From positions 1 through 41,066 of IMG/VR virus record IMGVR_UViG_3300034682_000404: a stretch of DNA of 41,066 nucleotides; one strand, 5' to 3'. Positions 211 through 10,167 of the stretch are shown piece by piece (position 1 is the first letter of the stretch; every line of letters starts with the position of its first letter). The position numbers and the translations under genes were made by a program. The stretch comes from a virus. The notes under the pieces are model-generated. The model ran no database searches. It was given only the letters and a program-made list of their open reading frames with translations, and had not been told where the DNA came from.

Positions 211-240
211 TCATCGATTGTAAATTTTATCAGTCATAAA

Positions 241-270
241 ACAAATGCCCCTCGGAGGGACATTTGTTTT
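241..270. terminator. Bidirectional Rho-independent terminator
   Basis: An inverted repeat at 241-267 pairs ACAAATG with CATTTGT, then continues after one mismatch through CCCT/AGGG around a CGG loop. It is followed on the + strand by a T run (267-271) and preceded by an A run (237-239), which gives a shorter U tract on the - strand. It sits between the convergent small gene at 1-210 and the ParA gene ending at 307, and should serve both. Confidence 0.8.
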
Positions 271-306: not shown

Positions 307-1371
307 TCAAAAATTATTGATCACATAATCAGCTAATCGATCATATTCTCTATCCATCCGACTCATAAGATCGATTTGGTTCTGTGCCCATTGGCCTCGA
401 ACAAGCATGTCTCTGGTTGGTTTTACGGTGTGTAGATATTTCAGTGGGACACCTTGGATAATGCTATCTGGGGCCATTACATTTAGATCTTCTATTTTTG
501 CAACTGGTAATGCCGTTACAAATGTAGGTACTGCTGTGTATGAGTGGATTTGACTAGTTAATGCAGGAATTAAGCTAGTAGAGACAGAGTGGTTTATTAT
601 ATTAAGGTGAGCTAAATCAGCTCCAACTTCTGTTGCAACGGATGCTCCAGGACGTTTTCTTGTGTCAAACCCGTTGAACATCCAACCAGCAAACTGTGGT
701 CTCCCTTTTGACTGAATTCGATTATCTGCGCCGTTATTTTGTATGTGTCTATATTTACCGCTTTCCCAATCCTGTATAAATCTTGGAAGCATTTCACCTA
801 TAAGGCCAATACAATAAGCCGAAAATAGGTCAGCTGTACACGGTACTATGAAGTAATCTGAGCAGTACAGCGCAGACCGCACTAATGAGTTGAAGGATGG
901 AGGTACATCTATTAATACATAGTCGTACTTAGTACCAGTCACTCGACTCGCTTCATCAGAAATAATAGATGGAAGCAAGAATCTATAAAGACCACCTCCA
1001 GCTACAACATCTGTACCAACATTAAGCAAATCAGACATATTGTTCAGCCAAAAATCACCGGCAATAACGTGCATGTTGCCTTTTGACGGCCTTATCTTGG
1101 GATGAAAGCAATTTAATACCGGTGGCATGTTCTGCATTAAAAACGGCTGGACAAAGGCTCTAATAGTTTTACCGAAAGGTGTACCTTGCGATTTTTGTAG
1201 CAACTCAGCGAAGACTGTATCTCCTAGTGCTGCAATCGATAAATTACATTGAGGATCGAAATCAATGAGTAAGACATTTTTTCCTTTCTCAGCTATTGAG
1301 GTTGCTAAGTTCCAAGTTGAAGTTGTTTTACCAACTCCACCTTTGTTGTTAAACAGAGTGATTGTAATCAT
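307..1371 (-). CDS. Orphan ParA/MinD-type P-loop ATPase
   Basis: A 354-residue protein with the deviant Walker A motif KGGVGKTT at residues 10-17, including the signature first lysine. The LIDFDPQ motif is at 35-41 and Walker B (YVLIDVPPS) at 151-159, all typical of the ParA family that forms ATP-dependent dimers on DNA. It is longer than plasmid ParA proteins of about 210-260 residues and has extra sequence after the core. No ParB lies beside it. The gene is set apart from the early operon by 121 bp with its own likely promoter, and it looks AT-richer than the genes to its right. It may be phage cargo, or host DNA just outside the left phage end. The ATPase call is firm; the role is not. Confidence 0.85.
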   Translation of the reverse strand: MITITLFNNKGGVGKTTSTWNLATSIAEKGKNVLLIDFDPQCNLSIAALGDTVFAELLQKSQGTPFGKTIRAFVQPFLMQNMPPVLNCFHPKIRPSKGNMHVIAGDFWLNNMSDLLNVGTDVVAGGGLYRFLLPSIISDEASRVTGTKYDYVLIDVPPSFNSLVRSALYCSDYFIVPCTADLFSAYCIGLIGEMLPRFIQDWESGKYRHIQNNGADNRIQSKGRPQFAGWMFNGFDTRKRPGASVATEVGADLAHLNIINHSVSTSLIPALTSQIHSYTAVPTFVTALPVAKIEDLNVMAPDSIIQGVPLKYLHTVKPTRDMLVRGQWAQNQIDLMSRMDREYDRLADYVINNF

Positions 1372-5634: not shown

Positions 5635-5877
5635 TTACTCTTCAGAAATCAGGAGGGTGTTTACCTCCTGTGGGTTCAATGGTTTCATGGCGTTTAACAG
5701 CCACACGTCACGGATCACATCTAAATCTTGCTGGCTAAATTCAGCCGTCTTATCAGTGGTGGCCACCTCCAGCCCCATATCGCCATGGCGCGGTGCCATG
5801 GCTACAATCACGCCGTGGTGAGGGTGAACATCCCGAAACACCATCAGCACCAGGTCAGAAAACTTCACCGTTCTCAT
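5635..5877 (-). CDS. Small phage early protein, 80 residues
   Basis: An 80-residue protein that begins inside the stop codon of the MuB-like gene (ATGA overlap), so it is translationally coupled to it. The N-terminal half is beta-like (KFSDLVLMVFRDVHPHHGVI); the C-terminal half is helical and acidic (SQQDLDVIRDVWLLNAMKPL). No family recognised. Position and coupling make it a real gene of the early operon. Confidence 0.6.
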   Translation of the reverse strand: MRTVKFSDLVLMVFRDVHPHHGVIVAMAPRHGDMGLEVATTDKTAEFSQQDLDVIRDVWLLNAMKPLNPQEVNTLLISEE

Positions 5878-7154
5878 GCTTTCACCTTCAGCTGCTTCAC
5901 CAGCTCACCGCTTATTTTGCTTTCGCCCAAACGTGCAGCCAGGTTCATGGCATTTTTCATCAAGGTGTTCACATTCAGCGGGTAGCTCATATCCACTATT
6001 TCGTCGGCTTTGCCTGTGTTGGCACCAAAGCGGCGTGCACCTCTCAGCACATCCTGCATAGCGTCATAAGCGTCATCAGTAAGCAGATCGCTGGGTACCT
6101 TGTTGACAGAGTTCAGCTTCAGGCTCACATAGTTCTGCAGCTCTTTGCCCAGCGGTTGGATCACCACCTGAGTGGCGCGGTAGGTAAACTCACGGATAAA
6201 GTGGTTTTTAAGTTTTTTCTCCATTTCGTTCTGGCCAATCAAAATGATGCCAATGAACTTGGTAAAGCCGTCAGCCAGCTCCCAAATGCGTTTTAACTGC
6301 TTAATCACGTCATCGGTCAGGTCATGCGCCTCATCAATCACCAGCACATGGCGGTTGCCAGCTTTGTAGCTTTGTGTCAGAACATCCCGAATAATCGAGT
6401 CGCGGTGCTCAGAGCTTTTTGGCTTAATGTTCACCTGCAGCTCACGCATAATGCTTTCCGAAATGGTGTTGGCTCCAATTTCACGGCGGTCAATACGTGC
6501 GGGTTCAATGATCCGAATGTTCGGATATTCAGCGTTCACCTTTTCATTGAACACGCGACGCACTGTGGTTTTGCCAGCTCCACACTCGGCATATACACAC
6601 AACATGCTGCCCATGCGGGCCGCTTGGATCATGTGCTCTACGGCATAGCGGTGGCTGCCACTCATATACACCTGGTCCATACTGTAAATTTCGTTCTCAA
6701 ACGGGTCCTGGAAGAACCCAAAGTGCTCTTTGGCTTGTTGGCTTAACATTTCTGGCTCCGGTAATGGGTTAATCAAACGTCCGTTCAGGTCTTCCTCAAA
6801 CTGCTCCTGGTAACTGCGGGCCTTGTACAGCGCACGCCATTTAGCGCCTGCAGTAATTGGCCTTTCATTTGGGTCACGTATAAAAATCAGGTGGGCCTGG
6901 CTTTCAGCCACCAGGCCGTTTTCAACGGCAAAGCGGGTAAGGGCGGCGTGAATTTCTTCCTGTTTTTTCTTCGGCCAGTCGCCATGCTTAATAATCAGGT
7001 TCAGCGTTGCCGCACTGATATCTAAGTCACAGTGATCACGCACCCATTCCACGACACTGGCTTGGCTCAGCCCTTTATTGGCCAGCATCCGTCCAAGGCG
7101 AATTTTCCAATCCCGCTGTATCACCACTTGTTTGTGCTCGTTTGGTTTAGCCAT
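5874..7154 (-). CDS. MuB/TnsC-like transposition ATPase
   Basis: A 426-residue AAA+ ATPase. An N-terminal helix-turn-helix (about 18-65, with GLSQASVVEWVRDHCDLDIS) precedes Walker A ECGAGKTT at 190-197, Walker B VLVIDEAHD at 270-278 and a sensor-like IGIILIGQNE at 301-310. This is the MuB plan: an ATP-dependent DNA-binding protein that selects target DNA, delivers it to the transposase and protects phage DNA from self-insertion. The protein is longer than Mu B (312 residues) and closer in length to BcepMu-type relatives. It lies directly downstream of the transposase in the same operon. Confidence 0.9.
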   Translation of the reverse strand: MAKPNEHKQVVIQRDWKIRLGRMLANKGLSQASVVEWVRDHCDLDISAATLNLIIKHGDWPKKKQEEIHAALTRFAVENGLVAESQAHLIFIRDPNERPITAGAKWRALYKARSYQEQFEEDLNGRLINPLPEPEMLSQQAKEHFGFFQDPFENEIYSMDQVYMSGSHRYAVEHMIQAARMGSMLCVYAECGAGKTTVRRVFNEKVNAEYPNIRIIEPARIDRREIGANTISESIMRELQVNIKPKSSEHRDSIIRDVLTQSYKAGNRHVLVIDEAHDLTDDVIKQLKRIWELADGFTKFIGIILIGQNEMEKKLKNHFIREFTYRATQVVIQPLGKELQNYVSLKLNSVNKVPSDLLTDDAYDAMQDVLRGARRFGANTGKADEIVDMSYPLNVNTLMKNAMNLAARLGESKISGELVKQLKVKA

Positions 7155-7166
7155 GGTCAGTACTCC

Positions 7167-8939
7167 TTACACTGCACGCAAAGCGGGCTTGGGTTGTAAT
7201 TGTCGCGTCATCAGCTGAATCAGCTGCGCAAGGTCTGCTTCGGCCACCTCACCGGCAGCGGTTAGCCATTGGTTTTCTTCAGCACTCAGTGGCCGATCAA
7301 TCAGCTGCAACACAGCTGTTTTAAGCGCAATCCCCGAAAGCTTCTTGCTGACAGGCGCTTCAAAACCGGTTTGCACTTGCTCACCTTTCACTGGCATATA
7401 GGTAGGGTTGTAGGCATCCTGCAGGTGCGACAGCGCATCCAAACCGCCAAATGGCGCGGTTTTCTTCTGGCGGGCTTTGGTTATTTCGTCGTCGGTCAGG
7501 TTGGGGTACGCAGTGCGCAGCGCCGCTTTACGTTGTTCGTCCACTTGTGTATCTGCCACGCCTTTAAATTCGGCACCTATCACCGCAGAGCTGTCCACAA
7601 AACCATTGTGATCCATCGCCTCTGGCTTCACCTGGTGGCATTGCTCCTGATTCTGAAAGGTGCAATACACCAACATTTCGGCGTCATCGCTCATCACCAG
7701 CGGAGTGATCAGCACTTCAAGGCCCACATAAATGCCTGCTAAGCCGGTTAATGGATAGGTATGGCTGCGCTTAGTGCGGGGGTGGGTGGCGCTAATAGCC
7801 AGGTCTTTGCCCACTTTGCGGGTTTCTGGTTTATGGGTCAGCAACCAGCGGCAAACCTCTGGCGCTGGCAGTTCGCGCACTGTGGTGTACGAGCGAATGG
7901 TTTGCCAGTTCTCATAACGGGCCATACCGTGGCGGCCGTGGGTCGAGTCGTAACCAGGTATGGTGTTGGCGTTGTAAGCGTTCTGCCAGGCTTCAGCTTT
8001 CTGGTTCAGCTCTTCAACGCTGTGCACCGGCTCTAGCAAAATACGGCTTTCAAACAGCTTCTCTACCAGGTTGTTGGCGTTTTCTACCTGGCCTTTGGCT
8101 CTGGCGTTCTTTGCTTTGTGATCCAGCAGGGTAATATTCAAAGCCCTTACGGCACGCTTTACCGCAATACTTTGGTTGGCACTGCCTTTGTCCATCAGCA
8201 GTATTTCTGGCAAGCCACGCATAGGGCAGCGGCTATCGTTATGTTCGCCCCAGGCCCATAGTAAGAATTGATACAACAGCATGCTGCTTTCACCAGCAGC
8301 CTCAAAGTAGCGAAACCGAATGGTACCGCTACAGTGATCGGTCATCACATAACGCCATACCCGAAGGTTGGCTACTTTCTCAAGGTTCTGCGGTTTGTTT
8401 TTATAAAAGTCGTCATCATCCATAAATTTCTGGATTTTGCCGCTGCGCCCAGGCGGGTAGTACAGGAGGCACAGCGACGGATCCACCTGGTGCACGTGGT
8501 TGGGGTAAAGGCTTTTTAAGTGAATATGCGCAGTAGGGGCCGCCAACTGCTTTGCAGTGGCTTGCCTGTCGCGCAGAACACGGCGCAGCGTGCTATTGCT
8601 GCAGTCGATGGTGTGGCCATTGGCACTTAAAATGCTGGCGGCGTTGGGCAGCTCCATAATCTGCTTACCGTTGGCACGGGTACCCGTAGCCAGCAATGCT
8701 GCAGCGTGGGCAATAGTGGTTTCGTCCAGGCTGGTGGTGCCGGCATCAGAGCGTTTTTTCCGGCCACTGGTCCAGCCCAGTGCTTTTAGCTCACGGTAAA
8801 ACTTGTCTTTGCTCCAGGCCAGCTGCTGCTGAACCTCGGCCAAAATAGTATTCTTTTCACCGTGCTTGGCGCTTTCCAGGCGCTGGGCAAACATCAGTAT
8901 CAACTGGCTTTGTGCAACATTGGCAGATAGCTCAAACAT
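7167..8939 (-). CDS. Mu/TnsB-type DDE transposase
   Basis: A 590-residue transposase with an rve-type catalytic core. The three acidic residues are visible: D153 in HQVDPS, D250 in LLMDKGSAN and E286 in GQVENANN. The 35-residue spacing between the last two is classic for D,D-35-E enzymes. N-terminal helix-turn-helix regions for end binding precede the core, and a beta-barrel and Mu-type C-terminal region follow. It should cut and join the phage ends during replicative transposition. ATG 8939 is the start because GGAGG lies five bases upstream; a frame 24 codons longer would overlap the preceding gene. It is followed by the MuB-like ATPase. Confidence 0.93.
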   Translation of the reverse strand: MFELSANVAQSQLILMFAQRLESAKHGEKNTILAEVQQQLAWSKDKFYRELKALGWTSGRKKRSDAGTTSLDETTIAHAAALLATGTRANGKQIMELPNAASILSANGHTIDCSNSTLRRVLRDRQATAKQLAAPTAHIHLKSLYPNHVHQVDPSLCLLYYPPGRSGKIQKFMDDDDFYKNKPQNLEKVANLRVWRYVMTDHCSGTIRFRYFEAAGESSMLLYQFLLWAWGEHNDSRCPMRGLPEILLMDKGSANQSIAVKRAVRALNITLLDHKAKNARAKGQVENANNLVEKLFESRILLEPVHSVEELNQKAEAWQNAYNANTIPGYDSTHGRHGMARYENWQTIRSYTTVRELPAPEVCRWLLTHKPETRKVGKDLAISATHPRTKRSHTYPLTGLAGIYVGLEVLITPLVMSDDAEMLVYCTFQNQEQCHQVKPEAMDHNGFVDSSAVIGAEFKGVADTQVDEQRKAALRTAYPNLTDDEITKARQKKTAPFGGLDALSHLQDAYNPTYMPVKGEQVQTGFEAPVSKKLSGIALKTAVLQLIDRPLSAEENQWLTAAGEVAEADLAQLIQLMTRQLQPKPALRAV

Positions 8940-8940
8940 A

Positions 8941-10167
8941 TCAGCCTCCAACCTTGGCGCTTGCTGCCAGCTGTTCCAGCACCTGCACAGCTGGTTTGGC
9001 TTTTTGTGCATAGCCTTTGAACATCAGCTCAGTGTCTTGCCAAAAGTCGGCCACATCTTCTGCCAGGCTGCGGCTGGTGGTGTACATTGCACCTGCCATG
9101 TAATCCATGGCGGCATGGTAAACAGAGCTGTCTGCACCAAATACGTCGTCTGAATCTGCTTCAGTTATTTTGTTTCTAATCACCATCAGCTTGTTTAAGC
9201 GCTGCAGTATTTCGCCTTCCAATGTGGCCACGCTCAGCACTAAAGAGCTGACATCACTTTTCCAGGCTTCGGGGTTAAACTTGCGGCTGGCTATGTCTTC
9301 TTTAAACTGATTGGCTTCGGCCTGTGCTTCATCACGCATCTGGCGGGCAACTTTAAGCGATTTATCCAGCTCTTCCTTTTCGCCTTTCAGTGCCTTCAGT
9401 TCTTTTTGGTGCTTTGCGTTTAAATCATCAATCAGCTCACGCAGCGCGTCTTTATCGCCTAAATCTACCGCTTCGTTTTCAATCACCAGTTGTTGCTGTT
9501 CTTCGGGAAGCTGGCGCAACTTACGCAGTTCGCGGTAGCCCAGTCCGATTTTTTGGCTGGCTTCAAAGAATTCTTCACCGAGTTGATTTAGGTTGAGAAG
9601 TCGATCATCTACAGTAGCTCTCGGAATGTTTAATTTACGCACGCAAAACTCGTCCCAACTGCTAACGGTTAGCAGTTCTTCGTTTTGATCCCTGTAGACC
9701 AAACCCTTATAGCTCTTGGTTTCCTTGATTTTTTGAATGATCTTCAAACTGCTAACGGTTAGCAGTTTGTTGATGAAATCAAATGCTTCGATCTGGCCGA
9801 TCTCCCGCATCACTTCTTCCATTTTTGCCATTACTTCTTTGGTATTAATCACGGCCTTTTGCTGGTCGTGGCTGAGTGGGGCGGTATCAGTGGTACTCAT
9901 AGTGGTCTGTTGCTCCATAGCCTGTGCCTCTATTACTTTTTGTGCTTCTGCTGGCTGCTCAGGTAAACGGTTGTCACCTGTATGTTTGTTTGGGCGATCC
10001 CATAGGTCGTCGGCCTCTACAGCTGCTTGTGCTGCATCCGCAAGTTTCTTTTTCCAGCGCAGCTCTGCCTTTGTAGGTTTTTGTTCTGCAGCTACCTCTG
10101 CTGCAAACAACTCGGCGTCAACATCACCAAAAGCGTCTTCATCGATGTGCAGTTCGTCGTTCGCCAT
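8941..10167 (-). CDS. Putative DNA-binding coiled-coil protein of the transposition operon
   Basis: A 408-residue protein directly upstream of the transposase. The N-terminus (1-120) is acidic and A/Q-rich. Residues about 170-225 (WDEFCVRKLNIPRATVDDRL, then YRELRKLRQLPEEQQQ) resemble the helix-turn-helix part of ParB/KorB-like proteins, and 245-292 is a charged coiled coil. The hexapeptide LLTVSS occurs twice (135-140 and 165-170) because a perfect DNA palindrome is embedded twice in the gene. I do not recognise a named family. A site-specific DNA-binding role is inferred from the helix-turn-helix and the palindromes, and no nuclease motif is seen. Confidence 0.6.
   Translation of the reverse strand: MANDELHIDEDAFGDVDAELFAAEVAAEQKPTKAELRWKKKLADAAQAAVEADDLWDRPNKHTGDNRLPEQPAEAQKVIEAQAMEQQTTMSTTDTAPLSHDQQKAVINTKEVMAKMEEVMREIGQIEAFDFINKLLTVSSLKIIQKIKETKSYKGLVYRDQNEELLTVSSWDEFCVRKLNIPRATVDDRLLNLNQLGEEFFEASQKIGLGYRELRKLRQLPEEQQQLVIENEAVDLGDKDALRELIDDLNAKHQKELKALKGEKEELDKSLKVARQMRDEAQAEANQFKEDIASRKFNPEAWKSDVSSLVLSVATLEGEILQRLNKLMVIRNKITEADSDDVFGADSSVYHAAMDYMAGAMYTTSRSLAEDVADFWQDTELMFKGYAQKAKPAVQVLEQLAASAKVGG
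9657..9677. repeat. Intragenic palindrome, copy 1
   Basis: The core CTGCTAACGGTTAGCAG is a perfect palindrome extended by AA and TT to 21 bp (10-bp arms around a central G). It lies in the coding sequence of the 408-residue DNA-binding protein and encodes LLTVSS. A second copy has its centre exactly 90 bp away. I found no other copy in the window. Confidence 0.85.
9745..9769. repeat. Intragenic palindrome, copy 2
   Basis: The same CTGCTAACGGTTAGCAG core as copy 1, with symmetry extending to 25 bp (12-bp arms around a central G at 9757). It again encodes LLTVSS in the same frame. Flanking sequence outside the palindrome is not shared with copy 1, so this is a repeated site and not a duplicated gene segment. 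Confidence 0.85.

What the first reader, a model, noticed from the sequence alone, without database searches (positions are those of the whole stretch)
9657..9769. Two perfect long palindromes inside the gene upstream of the transposase
CTGCTAACGGTTAGCAG occurs twice, as a 21-bp and a 25-bp perfect palindrome, centres 90 bp apart, within one coding sequence. Each encodes LLTVSS in frame, while the flanking DNA differs, so symmetry is being kept at DNA or RNA level. The host gene looks like a DNA-binding, ParB-helix-turn-helix-like coiled-coil protein, and an orphan ParA lies at the far end of the early region. Options: a binding site for the protein itself, a roadblock or pause controlling transposase synthesis, an enhancer-like site for transpososome assembly (compare the Mu enhancer, which differs in position), or a centromere-like site for a ParA pair.
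Basis: partly seen in the sequence, partly recalled or inferred. Interest (0 to 1): 0.72.

Follow-up and report, generated by a model that had tools for sequence, protein, structure and literature searches.

The report
Phage protein's target inside its gene
A transposing bacteriophage carries, inside the gene for a DNA-binding protein next to its transposase, two copies of what sequence evidence strongly suggests is the DNA address that this very protein recognises; across about 60 distinct related genes the address and the protein's recognition helix change together, and a second, unrelated protein in the same position does the same.

Summary
Observation confirmed. CTGCTAACGGTTAGCAG lies at 9659-9675 and 9749-9765 inside the 408-aa gene (8941-10167, minus) just upstream of the transposase; the two are the longest perfect palindromes of the window. 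In relatives the same positions hold other perfect palindromes with compensating changes in both arms (z = 11.2 and 11.7 against arm shuffling), and the two sites of one gene match each other (38 of 39; 6 expected). The arm bases follow three residues of the protein's own recognition helix: base 3 with residue 188, base 5 with 184, base 6 with 183. Predicting the base from dissimilar relatives succeeds in 85-94% of cases. Pseudomonas beetreviruses swap site pair and helix together as a cassette inside nearly identical genes. Phage B3 has an unrelated DNA-binding domain (DUF3102) in the same slot, with its own 26-bp intragenic palindrome and the same kind of code. So the palindromes are, with high confidence, the DNA target of the gene's own product. 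What binding achieves is inferred: most likely throttling of the early operon, or a cis element for transposition. A ParA pair is not supported (0 of 51 relatives). All evidence is computational; no binding was measured.

The parts
8941..10167 (-). 408-aa DNA-binding protein gene (phrog_4623, function unknown): predicted helix-turn-helix (residues 171-191) followed by a long coiled coil
9745..9769 (.). site A: perfect 25-bp odd palindrome CAAACTGCTAACGGTTAGCAGTTTG (codons of residues 134-141)
9657..9677 (.). site B: perfect 21-bp odd palindrome AACTGCTAACGGTTAGCAGTT (codons of residues 164-171)
9595..9621 (-). codons of the recognition helix (residues 183-191, RATVDDRLL); residues 183, 184 and 188 covary with half-site bases 6, 5 and 3
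   Evidence: nucleotide coordinates computed from the gene start at 10167
7167..9011 (-). transposase ORF (phrog_310), immediately downstream in the early operon
5874..7154 (-). AAA ATPase, DNA transposition protein (phrog_296, MuB-like role)
8662..8676 (.). weak resemblance to the site (TGCTTACCGTTGGCA, 2 mismatches of 14) inside the transposase ORF; at chance level, not counted as a site
   Evidence: foreign half-sites give about one such match per genome

Best explanation
The two palindromes are the cognate DNA target of the protein encoded by the gene in which they lie. A dimer is inferred to place its two recognition helices (residue 183 outermost, 188 nearest the centre) on the two half-sites GTTAGC read outward from the centre. 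The sites sit within about 150 bp of the codons of the recognition helix, so target and reader are inherited, recombined and diversified as one cassette. Shown by sequence evidence: conservation of symmetry independent of the peptide, identity of the two sites within a gene, covariation with the recognition helix, uniqueness of the site in the genome, cassette exchange. Inferred: that binding happens, that it is dimeric, and its consequence. The consequence I think most likely (about 45%) is that the protein assembles a nucleoprotein complex on the early operon just before the transposase and so limits transcription of itself, the transposase and the transposition ATPase; next (about 35%) a cis-acting architectural or loading site for transposition. 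The confidence given is for the identity of the target, not for its consequence.
For: Of only 9 matches to CTGCTAACNGTTAGCAG in IMG/VR, 7 lie in homologous genes, at three different positions of the gene; in 257 Gb of genomes 4 of 19 do. Relatives without this sequence have other perfect palindromes at the same places. Arm-shuffle test z = 11.2 (site A) and 11.7 (site B), none of 2000 shuffles reaching the observed value; sites A and B identical in 38 of 39 genes, 6.1 expected. Mutual information: top protein column for base 3 is residue 188 (z 6.8), for base 5 residue 184 (z 7.8), for base 6 residue 183 (z 6.7), codons of the sites excluded; transposase, ATPase and three other early regulators give no column above z 4.6 for these bases. 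Near-identical sister genes switch both together, e.g. L050/L055 GTT to GTC with Q188 to E, L024/L029 GTT to GTG with N188 to R. Prediction from relatives under 60% identical: base 3 49/54, base 5 46/54, base 6 47/50; baselines 32, 34, 32. The rule agrees with phages not used to derive it: Fc02, JBD67, SS2019XII, Komp_PAO1_1. The geometry agrees with ParB, whose R173 at the equivalent helix position contacts the outermost base pair of parS (PMC7383237). In the window and 10 relatives the phage's own site occurs twice in this gene and, apart from chance-level weak matches, nowhere else. The design recurs with an unrelated DNA-binding domain: 57 of 61 DUF3102 genes have a palindrome with at least 11 of 13 pairs, and bases 4-7 map to helix residues 102, 99, 98, 101 (z 7.0-12.5).
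Against: No binding, footprint or expression data. The fold is only predicted (mean pLDDT 80) and has no PDB match. Some relatives have one site degraded or none (for example L069, L093, L015 site A), and spacing varies (spacer 0, 1, perhaps 2). G-T mismatches at pair 4 in one clade (L040, L041, L044, L049, L052, L062) would also be tolerated by an RNA hairpin. Base 4 varies too little to be assigned. Nothing computed here distinguishes repression from an architectural role.
Confidence: 0.9

Rival explanations
1. Function, reading 2: transposition element. The bound protein acts in cis during transposition, like an enhancer or loading site that marks the phage's own DNA for its own transposase and ATPase. 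(Compatible with the best explanation of what the site is.)
For: Directly upstream of the transposase in every annotated relative checked. A related C-terminal part is carried by two unrelated DNA-binding heads (B3 and JBD25, 48% over 120 residues), which suggests an effector brought to an address. At least five head/site cassettes in phages of one host suggest selection for self-specificity. No Pfam domain, hence no Mu-type DNA-binding domain, is found in the window transposase, and the Mu enhancer-binding domain is reported missing from Leptospira transposable prophage transposases (PMC8705779).
Against: Position and number differ from the Mu enhancer, which is in the operator region; no covariation of transposase columns with the half-site above background for bases 3, 5, 6. 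No functional data.
Confidence: 0.35
2. Function, reading 1 in its narrow form: roadblock or pause. The bound protein stops RNA polymerase inside its own gene, giving negative feedback on transposase synthesis. (Compatible with the best explanation of what the site is.)
For: Sites lie only in the transcribed path between the early promoter and the transposase. In phage Fc02, which has this gene, early operon transcripts dwindle distally (PMC9936078).
Against: A roadblock would not need sites next to the helix codons or a long conserved C-terminal part; distal decline of mRNA has ordinary causes.
Confidence: 0.4
3. Centromere-like site for a ParA pair (partition).
For: A ParA-like gene lies at 307-1371 (phrog_164) and the helix-to-base rule resembles ParB.
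Against: phrog_164 in 0 of 51 relatives, while the same search finds it in the window; a transposing prophage is integrated and needs no partition; no ParB domain detected.
Confidence: 0.04
4. RNA hairpin acting in the mRNA (pausing, RNA binding or stability) instead of a DNA site.
For: Symmetry would also give a stem-loop; some mismatches are G-T.
Against: Covariation with a helix-turn-helix recognition helix in two unrelated families; loop would be 3 nt or, in even-centred relatives, 4 nt; constant core ACNGT at the centre.
Confidence: 0.03
5. By-product of protein constraint on the peptide LLTVSS, or of a repeated mobile palindromic element.
For: LLTVSS recurs at two places of the protein.
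Against: Relatives read LATVAS, LVTVTT, LLTVSN and so on while staying palindromic; in beetreviruses site B is in another reading frame (PNGS, EDGL, GHGD); the two copies lie in a helix and in or beside a strand of the model; no duplicated flanks.
Confidence: 0.01

Closest known systems
ParB-parS, including parS sites inside parB (Bacillus subtilis parS-359 lies within the parB gene, PMC4442127)
   Same: Short palindromic site recognised by a helix-turn-helix protein; the site can sit within the gene of its own binder; the helix residue equivalent to ParB R173 matches the outermost base.
   Different: No ParB CTPase domain, no ParA in relatives, no known family domain; specificity is hypervariable instead of conserved; the site is unique to this gene; odd-centred, usually two copies.
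Noc-NBS / ParB-parS specificity switching (PMC7383237)
   Same: A few residues of the recognition region set the preferred base at a few positions.
   Different: Here many natural site-helix combinations exist and site and helix are in the same short stretch of DNA.
Mu transpositional enhancer (internal activation sequence)
   Same: Internal phage DNA in the early region, near transposase functions, bound by a phage protein.
   Different: Mu's lies in the operator region and is bound by repressor and transposase; this one is inside a coding sequence upstream of the transposase and pairs with a different protein.
DUF3102 protein of phage B3 (ORF13)
   Same: Same slot upstream of the transposase, own intragenic palindrome, same kind of helix-site code, C-terminal part related to the beetrevirus proteins.
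   Different: Unrelated N-terminal DNA-binding domain; one 26-28-bp even palindrome with CAAAA...TTTTG ends instead of two short odd ones.

Membership tests
phrog_4623 | profile match over most of the protein | tested here: met
   E 1.5e-82, residues 80-403
ParB family | ParB CTPase (N-terminal) domain | tested here: not met
   no ParB family among Pfam matches of the protein or its 64 relatives, nor in NCBIfam
ParB family | ParB/KorB type helix-turn-helix domain by sequence or fold | tested here: not met
   no ParB or KorB profile hit with isolated HTH segments; no PDB fold match for full or core model; only the recognition-helix geometry is alike
ParB family | partner ParA | tested here: not met
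   0 of 51 relatives, positive control in the window
ParB family | specific binding to a palindromic site | tested here: inconclusive
   strong covariation, no binding assay possible
Mu enhancer | located in the operator region and bound by the transposase N-terminal domain | tested here: not met
   sites are in a coding sequence; no Pfam domain found in the transposase; half-site does not track transposase columns
B3-like transposable phages | early operon with CII-like gene, small regulator, this gene, transposase, ATPase in that order | tested here: met
   window; B3 and beetreviruses

The most novel reading that the evidence does not exclude
B3-like transposable phages carry a self-address module: a DNA-binding head, exchangeable between at least two unrelated kinds, whose unique target is written inside its own coding sequence beside the transposase, joined to a C-terminal effector. 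Head and target are swapped as one cassette, so that phages sharing a host stay orthogonal and the module marks each phage's own genome for control of its own transposition.
Probability: 0.35. Interest if true: 0.88.

Novelty: new variant of a known kind. Interest (0 to 1): 0.82.

Why it matters
It turns a gene of unknown function found across many transposable phages, and a second unknown family (DUF3102), into DNA-binding proteins with predicted targets and a readable residue-to-base code, which can be tested at once with oligonucleotides. It provides a natural data set of matched recognition helices and sites, useful for studying how DNA-binding specificity evolves when reader and target share one gene. 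It is also a clear case of protein sequence being subordinate to a DNA site in the same bases. If the role in transposition holds, it would add a regulatory layer missing from the Mu paradigm.

Tried and rejected
A single-sequence search of IMG/VR with the protein found nothing; the palindrome search and an alignment search worked. ParB/KorB membership: rejected for lack of any profile or fold match. PDB sequence search with the profile returned only coiled-coil noise. ParA partnership: rejected. Further copies in the genome: none beyond chance. Host target in bacterial chromosomes: 15 of 19 genome matches lie outside this gene family and look like chance. Transposase, ATPase and other early regulators as binders: no comparable covariation for bases 3, 5 and 6 (base 4 varies too little to be used). 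RNA hairpin: mismatch types were not decisive by themselves; the helix covariation decides. Paper searches found nothing describing these sites; the one held paper that names DUF3102 together with phage is on another topic.

Full report
CTGCTAACGGTTAGCAG is at 9659-9675 and 9749-9765, extended to perfect odd palindromes of 21 bp (9657-9677) and 25 bp (9745-9769). These are the two longest perfect palindromes of the window; Markov shuffles give 0.12 with arms of 10 or more and 0.02 with arms of 12 or more per window. Both lie in the minus-strand gene 8941-10167 (408 aa, phrog_4623, function unknown), and both read LLTVSS. The next genes in the operon are a transposase (phrog_310) and a transposition ATPase (phrog_296).

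The palindrome is tied to this gene. An exact scan of IMG/VR for CTGCTAACNGTTAGCAG gave nine loci; seven are in homologous genes. They occupy three positions of the gene: A (KLLTVSSLK), B (ELLTVSSWDEF) and, in L009, C, where the usual E-A/T-S-Q-K/R-I/L-G of the protein has been replaced by LLTVSSLS. A scan of 257 Gb of bacterial genomes gave 19 loci, four of them in this gene family, including a second case of position C (L112); the other fifteen look like chance.

The symmetry, not the peptide, is conserved. An alignment search returned 80 IMG/VR loci with relatives. Where the sequence is not CTGCTAAC the same two positions mostly hold other perfect palindromes: CTGGCAACnGTTGCCAG, TCGTAACnGTTACGA, TGGTAACnGTTACCA, TGCTGACnGTCAGCA, TACTGACnGTCAGTA, TGGTGACnGTCACCA, TCGTCACnGTGACGA and others. 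Pairs 3-7 match far more often than when right arms are dealt out among genes: 217 against 133.5 +/- 7.4 for site A, 232 against 149.1 +/- 7.1 for site B. Where both sites are perfect they carry the same half-site in 38 of 39 genes, 6.1 expected. A few distant relatives have even-centred palindromes, for example TGCCGACGTCGGCA in L013.

The half-site follows the protein's own recognition helix. With 58 genes (effective number about 34) the protein column with most information about base 3 is residue 188, about base 5 residue 184, about base 6 residue 183 (z 6.8, 7.8, 6.7, codons of the sites left out); five other early proteins tested the same way give at most z 4.6 for these bases. Glu188 goes with C (15 of 17), Arg188 with G (5 of 5), most others with T; Arg183 goes with C (31 of 31), Tyr183 with A (5 of 6). 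Closest relatives that differ in the half-site differ in the recognition helix too, mostly in the matching residue. Prediction from relatives less than 60% identical is right in 49/54, 46/54 and 47/50 cases against baselines of 32, 34 and 32. Relatedness could inflate such numbers, but the sister-pair switches and the position of the top columns in one predicted helix argue against that. Caulobacter ParB uses the equivalent position, R173, for the outermost base pair of parS, and N178, equivalent to 188, also contacts DNA (PMC7383237); this equivalence is my alignment of the helix motif, not a detected homology.

Phages of one host show cassette exchange. In ten Pseudomonas aeruginosa beetreviruses the gene and its flanks are mostly 90-100% identical, but a stretch of about 350 bp with both sites and the helix falls to 50-78% over most of its length between types. 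JBD25 has two GGTCACGGTGACC, Fc02 two CCGAACGGTTCGG, CF125a and JBD67 AGCCGAACGGTTCGGCT plus ATGCCGAACGGTTCGGCAT, SS2019XII two GAAGACGGTCTTC; the more distant Komp_PAO1_1 has GGTGACCGTCACC and a 19-bp site around GGTGACGGTCACC. Centres are 76 bp apart, so the second site is in another reading frame and encodes quite different residues. As far as their residues occur in the training set these phages obey the code, although four of them (Fc02, JBD67, SS2019XII, Komp_PAO1_1) were not used to derive it.

A second family repeats the design. In phage B3 the same slot holds a DUF3102 protein with an unrelated N-terminal part but a C-terminal part 48% identical to the beetrevirus protein. Its gene contains CAAAACGGACAACGTTGTCCGTTTTG, the longest perfect palindrome of B3 and unique in it. 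Of 61 distinct relatives 57 have at least 11 of 13 pairs; pairs match 397 times against 295 +/- 8 in shuffles; base 7 is tied to residue 101 (normalised information 0.93, z 12.5), base 6 to 98, base 4 to 102 and base 5 to 99, all in the putative recognition helix.

Site number and place. In the window and ten relatives the phage's own site, with up to two mismatches, occurs twice, 90 bp apart in this gene; three genomes show one extra weak match each, at the rate seen with foreign half-sites. The ParA-like gene at 307-1371 has no counterpart in 51 relatives.

What it does. That the gene's product reads these sites is well supported. What follows from binding is inference. Sites lie between early promoter and transposase and nowhere else, which fits feedback on the early operon; Fc02 early transcripts decline distally (PMC9936078), which is weak evidence. 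A shared C-terminal part under two unrelated DNA-binding heads, and orthogonal cassettes in one host, suggest rather that an effector is brought to a self-specific address, which would fit a role in transposition. I give about 45% to feedback of some kind, 35% to a cis role in transposition, the rest to other functions; these two are not exclusive.

Novelty. Binding sites inside the gene of their own binder are known (parS-359 in B. subtilis parB, PMC4442127), so the kind is known. The hypervariable, internally matched pair in one coding sequence, in two unrelated families in the same slot, I could not find described in the papers held here; subscription literature was not searched.

Noticed in passing
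L136 gene 1506-2432 (phage B3 ORF13); L139, L140, L146-L225: DUF3102 proteins upstream of the transposase have one 26-28-bp palindrome in the gene whose arms covary with helix residues 98, 99, 101, 102; base 2 (ACGT versus GCGC centre) tracks residues 128, 162 and 163 outside the helix.
   Followed up: yes
window 307-1371: ParA-like ATPase gene at the end of the early region, absent from 51 relatives; looks like accessory cargo.
   Followed up: partly
L007 4501-4517: CAACTGCTAACCGTTAGCAGTTG, a 23-bp palindrome of the same sequence in a viral contig with no homologous gene in the fetched locus.
   Followed up: no
L040, L041, L044, L049, L052, L062: One clade keeps a T-G mismatch at pair 4 in site A (and partly B), with half-sites GTCGGC/GTCGGT/GTCGGA opposite GTCAGC or GTCAGA.
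   Followed up: partly
L015 site B; L009 and L089 site A: L015 has GGCAACAGGTTGCC, the same half-sites with a 2-bp spacer; L009 and L089 have spacer 0, so half-site spacing may be flexible.
   Followed up: partly
window 238-270: Imperfect inverted repeat AAAACAAATGCCCCTC / GAGGGACATTTGTTTT just beyond the end of the leftward early genes, possibly a terminator.
   Followed up: no
window 7167-9011: The transposase has no Pfam match at E 0.1 although PHROGs identifies it clearly; its ORF as listed overlaps the end of the 408-aa gene by 71 bp, so its start codon is uncertain.
   Followed up: no
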